Assembly (NCBI GenBank): GCA_009837355.1 | Contig: VXTR01000082.1 | Coordinates: 1-64,000 of the forward strand | DNA from: Chloroflexota bacterium | Lineage (GTDB): Bacteria > Chloroflexota > Dehalococcoidia > Lucifugimonadales > UBA3495 | Length of the DNA stretch: 64,000 nucleotides | Direction: 5' to 3' | In this document: piece by piece, positions 7,630 to 31,526 of the stretch | How the letters are laid out: each line of letters starts with the position of its first letter | How positions within the stretch are numbered: position 1 is the first letter of the stretch | Program-made: the position numbers and the translations under genes | The notes under the pieces: model-generated | What the model saw: the letters and a program-made list of their open reading frames with translations, nothing else | What the model was told of the DNA's origin: nothing | Database searches by the model: none

Positions 7630-8121
7630 TTAGCCGTTCCCCGGCCCATAATCCTGCCACAGCCGCGCTACGGTATCCCGAGTTACGCCACTGGCAAAAC
7701 CCCGCCGCCGCAGGTAGTCCCACATCTTGCGACGGAATGTCCCGTGGGGCATATCGCCCCGTTCCAGCCACCGTTGCGCCCGCCGTTCGCCGGCCCGGTA
7801 TGCGCCGTCGGCTTCGTCCAGCCCCTCAAGTGTGGCATCGATGATGCTGTTCGCCACCCCCTTGGCCCGCAGCTCCCGACGTAGCGCAAAGGCTCCCCTG
7901 GGCTTCCGCCGTTCCCTGTTGTCCCGCCAGCGCCGGGCGAAATCCTCATCATCCAGGTAGCCGTAGCGGTTCAGCGACGCCAGCACTTGTTCAACGACGG
8001 GCTGGGAAAACTCCTTCCCAACCCGTCGTCGTACTTCGGTCACCGACCGTTGGCGGAAGCTGACGTAGCGCAGGGCCACCTGCAGTGCCCGCGCATAGTC
8101 GTCAGACTCGGACGCTTCCAT
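7630..8121 (-). CDS. recX: Regulatory protein RecX
   Basis: A 163-residue RecX homologue, a small helical protein that binds RecA filaments and limits recombinase activity. Family features are ALRYVSFRQRSVTEVRRRV near the N-terminus and the RYGYLDDEDFARRWRDNRERRKPRG segment, followed by two more three-helix repeats. The ATG shares one base with the recA stop (ATGA), so it is coupled to recA. The length is typical. Confidence 0.93.
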   Translation of the reverse strand: MEASESDDYARALQVALRYVSFRQRSVTEVRRRVGKEFSQPVVEQVLASLNRYGYLDDEDFARRWRDNRERRKPRGAFALRRELRAKGVANSIIDATLEGLDEADGAYRAGERRAQRWLERGDMPHGTFRRKMWDYLRRRGFASGVTRDTVARLWQDYGPGNG

Positions 8122-9236
8122 CAGTTCAGGCTTACCCCTCCGGCGCCGGCGATGTGAGGTGCCCCGCCGTTGGCTGAGGCCATCCCGTAGCCGTTGACCA
8201 GGTCGTCCGCCAGCGTTTCATCCGGCTCGTCTTCGCCGCGAATCAGCGCTTCGATTGTGCCCGCCATTTCGGGATTCTCGCTCAGGAACACCTTGGAGTT
8301 CTCTCGTCCCTGCCCCAGGCGAGTTTCGCCGTAGGAGTAGAATGAACCGGCTTTCTTGATGATGCCCTGGTTCACGCCGATGTCCAGCAGGTCGCCCATC
8401 TTGCTGATGCCCTGGTTGAACATAATGTCAAACTCAGCCACCCGGAACGGCGCCGCCACCTTGTTCTTCACGATGCGCGCCCGCACCCGGCTGCCGATGA
8501 TTTCCGAACCTTGCTTCAGTGATTCGCTGCGCCGCAGGTCTATCCTCACCGAGCTGTAGAACTTCAGCGCCCGTCCGCCCGGCGTTACCTCCGGACTGCC
8601 GTAGCTGATGCCGATTTTCTCGCGAATCTGGTTGATGAACACTACCGCAGTACGGGAACGGTTAATGGTCGATGTCAGCTTGCGCAGCGCCTGCGACATC
8701 AGCCGCGCCTGCATCCCTACGTGAATGTCCCCCATATCGCCCTCAATTTCTGCCTGGGGAACCAGGGCGGCCACGCTGTCAATCACTACCGAGTCAACGG
8801 CGCCGCTGCTCACCAGCTTCTCGGTGATGTCCAGCGCCTGCTCCGCCGAGTCCGGCTGAGAAATCAACAGATTGTCCAGGTCCAGCCCGCAGTTGGCAGC
8901 ATATTGCGGATCCAGCGCGTGCTCAGCGTCAATGTAGGCCGCTAGCCCACCCTGTTTCTGGGTCTCGGTCATAATGTGAATCGCCAGCGTAGACTTTCCC
9001 GCCGACTCGCCGCCGTAGATTTCAGTTACCCGGCCCCGGGGCAGCCCGCCTACGCCCAGCGCCAGGTCCAGGGACAGCGACCCCGTGGGAATGACGTTGG
9101 TTATCAGGTGCGCCACCTGCTCGTCGCCCCGCATCACGGCGCCTTTGCCGTGGTCTTTCTCAATGCGGCCCAGCGCGATTTCCAGGGCGGCCAGCTTGTC
9201 CTTGTCCAAGTTCAGGGTTTCCGGGTTGATTGCCAT
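8121..9236 (-). CDS. recA: Recombinase RecA
   Basis: A 371-residue RecA, the homologous recombination ATPase and SOS co-protease. Walker B (VVIDSVAAL), loop L1 (EIEGDMGD) and loop L2 ([18 protein letters not shown]) are canonical. The Walker A is unusual: GGESAGKST (75-83) instead of the near-universal GPESSGKTT. The key Lys and hydroxyl residue remain, so activity is expected. No intein is present. It is followed by overlapping recX and preceded by a promoter with a LexA-like site (9335-9363). Confidence 0.98.
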
Positions 9237-9334: not shown

Positions 9335-9363
9335 ATATTAGCACGTGCGTTCCGGCAAAGCAA
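9335..9363 (-). promoter_or_regulatory. recA promoter with LexA-like site
   Basis: On the minus strand, TTGCTT (9358-9363) is followed by 17 bases and then TAATAT (9335-9340), which has the extended TGC directly before it. Inside the spacer is GAACGCACGTGC (9341-9352). It matches the Gram-positive-type SOS box GAAC-N4-GTTC at seven of eight positions. This placement is what one expects for LexA control of recA. It is inferred from sequence only. Confidence 0.5.
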
Positions 9364-30758: not shown

Positions 30759-30836
30759 AGCGGTAATAACCTACTATCGCCGCCTAACTCCGTCAACCGC
30801 TGAGCCTTACCAGACCGGGTCTTTCGATTATCCGGG

Positions 30837-30885
30837 AAGGCCTCTCTCGCTTGATGGGCGGGATGCCCCTCTGGCGAAAGGCCGC
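30837..30885. repeat. Nested-hairpin intergenic repeat, second copy
   Basis: Related to 20170-20222: an arm with CCTCTCTCGC, the inner GGGCGGGATGCCC, and GGCGAAAGGCC. It shares the CCTCTGGCG-type core with the first copy. Confidence 0.5.
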
Positions 30886-30900
30886 GATTCTTACCCCCGC

Positions 30901-30951
30901 TGTCATGCCCGCGCCCCACCCGTCATGCTGGACTTGATCCGGCATCCAGGG
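30901..30951. repeat. GTCATGCTGGACTTGATCC-type intergenic element
   Basis: Inverted arms CTGGA...TCCAG enclose CTTGATCCGGCA, preceded by GTCATGCCCGCG. It carries the same GTCAT-start and ATCCAGG-end as the CGTCATTCC family and looks like a long-interior member of it. Confidence 0.55.
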
Positions 30952-31024
30952 GCCGGGCGGGGCCGCAACTCCAATCTTGCCAATCCCCAAAACCCTGATT
31001 CCGAAAATCGCTGACGCCGACCTA

Positions 31025-31053
31025 TTGACAATAAGCGAACAAACGTTCACAAT
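31025..31053 (+). promoter_or_regulatory. SOS-type promoter with perfect GAAC-N4-GTTC box
   Basis: A perfect -35 TTGACA (31025-31030), a 17-base spacer, then CACAAT (31048-31053). The box GAACAAACGTTC (31037-31048) fills the end of the spacer. This is the LexA/DinR operator form of Gram-positive-type SOS systems, preceded by the extra C of the consensus. The first recognised gene downstream is selB, about 475 bases away. What it drives is unknown. Confidence 0.55.
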
Positions 31054-31526
31054 GACCTTACACGCGTGAATCATCGGTATCCCACAGCCTGCAACGAGGT
31101 AATCAGAACCTACCATCACCCGGTTAGTTCGGTCGTCAACGGCCACAACCGTCAGCATCTCCAAATCGCAAGACCCTCGACCAACGGAGCTTGTTCCAGC
31201 GCGCTACCCACTGCGGCGTGTACGGCTAACTACATGACCCGTGCGAACTCAACGGTGGCTAATCGTTCCTTGCGTACCACCCCCGGCCGTGGGGCTGACA
31301 ACGACCACCTTACCTCTAGCAGGCTGCCCAACCTACCGAAAACCGAAATCAAGAAATCCCAAATCCAACAACCTGCCGAAACCAGCCCAAAGGGGCCAAC
31401 CGAAATGAACACCACGAAACGAACTCCCCCATCCTGAGGACGCTCCCGGCGAACAGAGCAAGGCAGCGCCGAAAATATGGTATCGTGTACCCGTTCTGCC
31501 GCGCCAAACCCGCAGGTCCCACTCCT

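What the first reader, a model, noticed from the sequence alone, without database searches (positions are those of the whole stretch)
31020..31065. Perfect SOS box in the large gap before selB with no recognised target gene
GAACAAACGTTC (31037-31048) matches GAAC-N4-GTTC exactly and sits in the spacer of a promoter with a perfect TTGACA -35. The nearest recognised gene in that direction is selB, about 475 bases away. The intervening DNA is lower in GC and contains a hairpin (31121-31151). This could drive an SOS-induced small RNA or a short peptide, or place selB-nurA-cinA under DNA-damage control. NurA as a DNA-end nuclease would fit the last option. The operator form is known for Gram-positive-type LexA; the target is inference.
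Basis: partly seen in the sequence, partly recalled or inferred. Interest (0 to 1): 0.55.

Follow-up and report, generated by a model that had tools for sequence, protein, structure and literature searches.

The report
SOS-box promoter of mobile structured RNA
The DNA-damage control site before selB belongs to one copy of a previously unlisted, many-copy family of structured RNA genes, some of which also carry a gene for a HEPN-fold protein; it is probably a damage-induced RNA element and not a switch for selB.

Summary
The site is real: GAACAAACGTTC at 31037-31048 lies in a TTGACA-17-CACAAT promoter. One such box in 64 kb is what chance gives, so significance comes from comparison. The order's lexA promoters carry the same kind of box beside the -10 element.

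The 31000-31437 stretch is one copy of a dispersed element: 24 core matches in this genome, 102 and 50 in two closed relatives, 12 of 14 genus genomes, none in 36 others of the family, controls zero. In 22 own-genome promoters the eight box letters are 95% identical pairwise, the central four 46%, the spacer 30%; 18 boxes are perfect.

The transcript is a structured RNA: at least six unrelated closing-stem sequences stay complementary, indels ignore reading frame, and Rfam has no family for it.

In related loci the RNA precedes a HEPN-fold protein gene (RNA core in 23 of 24 loci, shuffles 2.2). The window copy lacks that gene. In one relative, copies sit between IS256-type inverted repeats with 9-bp target duplications.

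SOS control of selB-nurA-cinA is not supported: 0 of 27 relatives have the box there.

The parts
31025..31030 (+). -35 hexamer TTGACA of the element's promoter
   Evidence: TTGACA in 21 of 22 own-genome copies listed (L104 has TTGACG)
31037..31048 (+). LexA-type operator GAACAAACGTTC
   Evidence: perfect in 18 of 22 own-genome copies; same kind of box in lexA promoters of the order
31048..31053 (+). -10 hexamer CACAAT (CATAAT or TATAAT in most other copies)
31085..31102 (+). 5' side of the closing stem: CAGCCTGC-aac-GAGGTAA
   Evidence: pairs with 31310-31326
31131..31136 (+). GGTCGT, pairs with ACGACC 31301-31306
31139..31144 (+). ACGGCC, could pair with GGCCGT 31285-31290, crossing the next helix (possible pseudoknot; inferred from the sequence, no covariation test)
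31151..31156 (+). GTCAGC, pairs with GCTGAC 31294-31299 (GTTAGC/GCTAAC in G011 copies)
31167..31171 (+). CGCAA of the conserved AAATCGCA, could pair with TTGCG 31270-31274
31270..31306 (+). conserved 3' core, TTGCGTACC..CCGGCCGTGGGGCTGACAACGACC
31310..31326 (+). 3' side of the closing stem: TTACCTC-ta-GCAGGCTG
31392..31437 (+). A/C-rich tail with AAAGGGG and a 10-codon ORF (31405-31437); in HEPN-bearing copies the protein gene starts about here
   Evidence: loss of the protein gene is inferred
9341..9352 (-). one-mismatch box GAACGCACGTGC upstream of recA (8121-9236, minus strand)

Best explanation
The site is a LexA operator in the promoter of one copy of a dispersed genetic element. The element makes a structured RNA of roughly 270 nt here (longer in other subtypes). 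When RecA inactivates LexA after DNA damage, this and about 20 similar promoters would fire together. In its fuller form the element is promoter, RNA, then a gene for a HEPN-fold protein; the window copy keeps only promoter and RNA. Shown here: the sequence, family, promoter layout, box conservation, stem complementarity and HEPN association. Inferred: LexA binding and damage induction. Least certain (about 0.35): the RNA binds and restrains, or guides, the HEPN protein, as ncRNA RCd22 does with AbiF in C. difficile, so that RNA-only copies act in trans on HEPN proteins made by the three full-length genes elsewhere in this genome.
For: Box in the order's lexA promoters: AAC-N4-GTT in 34 of 49 readable lexA upstream regions, no other spacing in more than 4 of 49; window box GAACAAACGTTC against own lexA box AAACAAACGTTG. 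Single LexA DNA-binding gene in the own genome. Dispersed family. Selection on the box: 22 own-genome promoters, box letters 0.95 pairwise identity, central four 0.46, spacer 0.30, 14 different centres, four spacings; 137 copies with 480 nt upstream have their best box at 0/1/2 mismatches in 27/98/12, shuffles 0.65/14.3/84.8. RNA: 115 of 135 copies have a perfect stem of 8 or more base pairs, 109 of 135 are reached by at most 2 of 100 shuffles, with at least six unrelated stem sequences; indels divisible by three 82 of 732, 0 of 84, 20 of 425. HEPN fold: 2hsb Z 17.1, rmsd 2.5, 122 residues. RNA core upstream of 23 of 24 protein loci, shuffles 2.15; box with at most one mismatch in 19 of 24, shuffles 5.15.
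Against: No LexA binding or expression data. The own lexA box differs from GAACN4GTTC at two positions. The window -10 (CACAAT) is weaker than in most copies. The window RNA alone folds no better than many shuffles (z -1.14, 28 of 200) and its own longest stem is reached by 4 of 100 shuffles. Copies within a genome are related, so counts are not independent events. Most HEPN-bearing loci have imperfect boxes; only 2 of 24 have an exact box in the promoter. R35-x3-H39 of alignment A1 is not the Rx4-6H spacing quoted in PMC3710099. Nothing shows that RNA and protein interact.
Confidence: 0.72

Rival explanations
1. The RNA is a cis-acting leader that controls translation or transcription of the HEPN gene; RNA-only copies such as the window's are by-products with no role of their own.
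For: The RNA sits directly before the protein gene with a Shine-Dalgarno-like AAGGAG just after the closing stem.
Against: RNA-only copies far outnumber protein copies and keep the box and the stems.
Confidence: 0.3
2. A miniature mobile element whose promoter and RNA are maintained only because copies are young; no cellular function in the window copy.
For: Inverted repeats and 9-bp duplications in G007: of 62 copies examined 31 have both repeats and 20 of these a 9-bp duplication with at most one mismatch; a 1068-bp IS with the same ends and an IS256/Mutator-type transposase.
Against: Within one genome spacers and box centres have diverged to 30% and 46% identity while the box stays at 95%; unrelated stems stay paired across species.
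Confidence: 0.2
3. The operator puts selB-nurA-cinA under DNA-damage control.
For: Same orientation, 478 bases upstream, no + strand terminator-like site found between; the second gene has a NurA domain, E 6.3e-18.
Against: 0 of 27 relatives have the box before selB; the gap is 168 bases without the element in G002; a GGTATCGT stretch near selB is shared with G002.
Confidence: 0.07
4. A regulator other than LexA, with a similar operator, binds here.
For: Relative G007 has three extra ORFs of 112-114 aa with a LexA-type DNA-binding domain.
Against: The own genome has one such gene, lexA itself, and lexA promoters carry the same kind of box in the same place.
Confidence: 0.06

Closest known systems
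AbiF_Cd with ncRNA RCd22, Clostridioides difficile (PMC12373285; abstract and passages read)
   Same: A noncoding RNA directly upstream of a HEPN-related protein gene, co-transcribed; the paper reports neutralisation by RNA-protein contact in cis and in trans.
   Different: The protein here is not Abi_2 by Pfam; the RNA is larger, closed by one long stem, and present in dozens of RNA-only copies; its promoter bears a LexA-type box, while the AbiF paper's main text has no mention of LexA or SOS.
Gram-positive-type SOS boxes (GAAC-N4-GTTC; recalled)
   Same: Operator sequence and overlap with the promoter.
   Different: The target is a repeated RNA element, not a repair gene.
SOS-induced toxin loci with small RNAs (SymE/SymR PMC1891008, DinQ/AgrB PMC3567139, TisB PMC2826370; search listing only)
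   Same: LexA-controlled locus with an RNA partner.
   Different: There the RNA is antisense to a toxin mRNA; here it is a structured RNA on the same strand as a HEPN gene.
PaREP1/HEPN-T proteins (PMC3710099; passages read)
   Same: HEPN fold; weak Pfam matches to HEPN (7 of 26, best 0.013) and PaREP1 (3 of 26, best 0.0024).
   Different: C-terminal HPxxCxxC tail and an upstream structured RNA, neither of which appears in the passages read.

Membership tests
LexA-regulated (SOS) promoter | GAAC-N4-GTTC palindrome | tested here: met
LexA-regulated (SOS) promoter | operator overlaps a sigma-70-type promoter | tested here: met
   same in 22 own-genome copies
LexA-regulated (SOS) promoter | same operator in the lexA promoter of the clade | tested here: met
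   AAC-N4-GTT in 34 of 49; exact GAACN4GTTC in 10 of 49; own lexA box has two mismatches
LexA-regulated (SOS) promoter | LexA binding and damage induction | not testable with these tools
   needs protein and RNA work
Type III-like toxin-antitoxin / AbiF | HEPN-fold protein | tested here: met
   (model of L197 protein)
Type III-like toxin-antitoxin / AbiF | Abi_2 protein family | tested here: not met
   Abi_2 not among the families matched at E <= 1 by 26 members
Type III-like toxin-antitoxin / AbiF | structured RNA directly upstream of the protein gene | tested here: met
   23 of 24 loci; the window copy itself has no protein gene
Type III-like toxin-antitoxin / AbiF | toxicity of the protein and neutralisation by the RNA | not testable with these tools
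   needs expression in a laboratory strain
Miniature inverted-repeat transposable element | terminal inverted repeats and target duplications | tested here: inconclusive
   met for many G007 copies; no ends identified for the window copy
Any Rfam 15 RNA family | covariance-model match at the gathering score | tested here: not met
   no match reached a gathering score
Canonical HEPN ribonuclease | Rx4-6H motif (as quoted in PMC3710099) | tested here: not met
   nearly invariant R35 and invariant H39 have three residues between them; other conserved basic residues remain

The most novel reading that the evidence does not exclude
A genus-wide, LexA-controlled RNA-HEPN system in which RNA-only copies have multiplied to about 100 per genome as mobile elements, each supplying the same damage-induced RNA in trans to a few HEPN effector genes: an SOS-triggered RNA-protein toxin-antitoxin-like or abortive-infection system whose RNA part has become a genomic parasite or a dosage device.
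Probability: 0.25. Interest if true: 0.85.

Novelty: new variant of a known kind. Interest (0 to 1): 0.7.

Why it matters
If right, DNA damage in these uncultured Dehalococcoidia would switch on dozens of copies of one structured RNA at once, together with HEPN proteins. It would tie the SOS response, mobile elements and RNA-controlled HEPN proteins together in one unit, add an RNA family that Rfam lacks, and give a testable case of an RNA spreading as repeats while keeping its operator.

Tried and rejected
SelB operon control: looked for the box upstream of selB in 30 loci; 28 had a readable start (L063 and L079 did not), one of them the own copy; 0 of the 27 others had it.

Bare-motif significance: the window count is at chance; genome-wide 56 against 21 for the reversed control, so the argument rests on the promoter pattern and on the family.

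Short peptide: the 10-codon ORF at 31405-31437 has no support beyond an SD-like AAAGGGG; copies differ there. Indels in the RNA ignore frame.

Arm-swapping control by duplex energy was badly designed: the arms were cut and GC-rich, and cross pairs reached -43.9 against a self mean of -31.1 (cross mean -21.4); discarded in favour of perfect-stem lengths with shuffles. In one search, 20 of 135 copies had stems under 8 pairs; several are wrongly anchored or false copies (for example L049, a lexA locus).

A two-sequence MAFFT alignment of the der-selB gap could not place the insertion; gap lengths came, where a der start was found in only 4 of 28 upstream regions (own, G002, G008, G010).

In one search the promoter pattern picked a wrong match for the window copy (its real promoter is exact), and 21 of 137 copies gave no promoter-plus-box match. 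Copies L240, L253, L294 (Clostridiaceae, Ralstonia and Desulfobacterales records) and duplicates of the window copy (L052, L082, L112) were dropped before counting.

Rfam weak hits are far below gathering scores. Solved-structure search by sequence gave only chance hits. Viral contigs: 0 exact matches to the RNA core. PADLOC and NCBIfam gave no convincing match to the protein. Eight literature searches returned no paper describing this element among the titles and abstract starts listed; most subscription papers are not held.

Full report
1. The observation. GAACAAACGTTC is at 31037-31048, between TTGACA (31025-31030) and CACAAT (31048-31053), spacer 17. A bare GAACN4GTTC in 64 kb is expected by chance (0.76). 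The own genome has 56 such sites against 21 for the reversed pattern, and 20 of the far stricter TTGACA-N2-9-GAACN4GTTC against 0.

2. Is it a LexA box in this clade? The genome has one LexA DNA-binding gene. Of 60 genomes (own and relatives), 55 have a LexA-type match. I read 50 upstream regions; 49 gave a LexA start (L015 did not). AAC-N4-GTT is in 34 of 49 and exact GAACN4GTTC in 10 of 49; no other spacing of AAC/GTT from 2 to 8 exceeds 4 of 49. The box mostly lies just after the -10 of a TTGACA promoter. Boxes chosen by similarity to GAACATACGTTC (so biased toward it) give GAAC in 48, 46, 49, 49 of 49 and GTT in 44, 47, 42 of 49. The own lexA has AAACAAACGTTG, sharing the ten central letters of the window box. 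recA, in this window, has GAACGCACGTGC upstream.

3. Not a selB operator. In 27 relatives with a readable selB start none has GAACN4GTTC upstream. The der-selB gap is 768 here, 168 in G002, and 807 and 805 in G008 and G010, which lack the RNA core there.

4. A dispersed element. BLAST of 30760-31526 gives 51 pieces in the own genome (40 of 56 candidates scored) and matches in 12 of 14 genus genomes. The 3' core pattern, one mismatch allowed, gives 24 in the own genome, 102 in G007, 50 in G003, matches in 12 of 14 genus genomes and 0 of 36 others of the family; reversed control 0 throughout.

5. The box is under selection. In 22 own-genome copies 18 boxes are perfect and 4 have one mismatch; pairwise identity is 0.95 for the eight box letters, 0.46 for the four between, 0.30 for the spacer; 14 different centres and four spacings occur. 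In 137 copies from all loci, best box mismatches are 0 in 27, 1 in 98, 2 in 12, against 0.65, 14.3 and 84.8 (3 mismatches: 37.2) in shuffles. Copies within a genome are related, so these are not independent.

6. A structured RNA. Upstream of AAATCGCA and downstream of the 3' core each subtype has a complementary pair with its own sequence: GCCAGAGGT/ACCTCTGGC (G007), AGCCTGCC/GGCAGGCT (G000), CGGAGATTCAA/TTGAATCTCCG (G003), GACCGGGTTTCAGG/CCTGAAACCCGGTC (second G007 type), TGCCAGAGCCG/CGGCTCTGGCA (G011), GAGGCAGGACTTC/GAAGTCCTGCCTC (G000:C72). 115 of 135 have 8 or more perfect pairs; 109 of 135 are reached by at most 2 of 100 shuffles. One search adds GACCAGGTTCCG-type stems in G004 and G011. 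The window copy's stem is CAGCCTGC-aac-GAGGTAA with TTACCTC-ta-GCAGGCTG and appears in its predicted minimum-energy and centroid folds, though its folding energy is ordinary (z -1.14). ACGGCC/GGCCGT crosses GTCAGC/GCTGAC, a possible pseudoknot. Gaps between copies are rarely multiples of three: 82 of 732, 0 of 84, 20 of 425. No Rfam family reaches its gathering score.

7. The protein partner. Some copies continue, after an AAGGAG, into an ORF. It has homologues in 14 of 14 genus genomes and marginal ones in 2 of 46 others; the profile reaches 29 of 147 genomes of the order, those outside the genus being weak matches mostly to the N-terminal 60-120 positions. The AlphaFold2 model (pLDDT 86.3) matches HEPN structures: 2hsb Z 17.1, rmsd 2.5, 122 residues; 1o3u 15.8; 1wol 14.9; unrelated helical rows lie lower. 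Pfam hits are weak. An RNA core lies within 620 nt upstream in 23 of 24 protein loci, shuffles 2.15. Full-length own-genome copies: C72, C33, C45; C33 and C45 have GTACATCCGTTC and GCACATCCGTTC in the promoter, C72 a poorer GAACGTATATCC.

8. Mobility. In G007 the copies lie between GGTAGCGTTCCGTTTYAGGTGGT repeats. Of 62 copies examined (G007, G003 and others) 31 have both repeats; 20 of these have a 9-bp duplication with at most one mismatch, e.g. GGCGATGTT. The repeat core (one mismatch allowed) occurs 173 times in G007, control 0; several pairs are exactly 1068 bp apart end to end and one such pair encloses a transposase matching Transposase_mut (2.5e-5) and IS256 (1.3e-9, under its cut-off). 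No such ends were found for the window copy.

9. Mechanism. Best reading: LexA represses all copies; damage releases RNA from many loci and HEPN protein from a few. AbiF with RCd22 (PMC12373285) is the nearest worked example: an upstream RNA restrains a toxic HEPN-related protein in cis and in trans. Whether that happens here is untested.

10. Novelty. The RNA is not in Rfam and eight searches of the held papers listed nothing on it. An RNA before a HEPN gene is known; LexA control, genus-wide RNA-only amplification and this RNA are the new parts.

Noticed in passing
30890-30986: A second, different dispersed repeat (GTCATGCTGGACTTGATCCGGCATCCAGG...) lies just upstream of the element; 88% match at G000:C39:19942-20041 and shorter pieces elsewhere.
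   Followed up: no
L196, L197, L198, L208, L219 (HEPN gene starts): Several HEPN genes show a good AAGGAG or AGGAGA but no ATG/GTG/TTG nearby; a shared ..CCATCGGAACCGT suggests a rare ATC start codon.
   Followed up: no
L053, L055, L057, L059 (der-selB region of relatives): Before selB relatives carry a gene (looks like DUF3800, recalled, untested) followed by a hairpin-bounded repeat GAGCCGGCTATCCGATTTTT...CCGGCTC, perhaps another RNA or mobile unit.
   Followed up: no
G007:C1:369523, 794193, 859555: Three ORFs of 112-114 aa with a LexA-type DNA-binding domain but too short for the protease part, besides a 219-aa lexA.
   Followed up: no
G007, e.g. C1:658616-658729 and 757392-757505: Mini-elements of about 114 bp with the same inverted repeats as the 1068-bp IS and the RNA elements.
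   Followed up: no
L240, L253, L294: Exact matches to the 3' core pattern in Clostridiaceae, Ralstonia and Desulfobacterales records; probably chance.
   Followed up: no
one hit per genome in G015, G016, G019, G021-G023, G027, G030, G032, G033, G035: Sister genera have a single TTGACA-N-GAACN4GTTC promoter with similar spacing, perhaps one conserved SOS gene.
   Followed up: no
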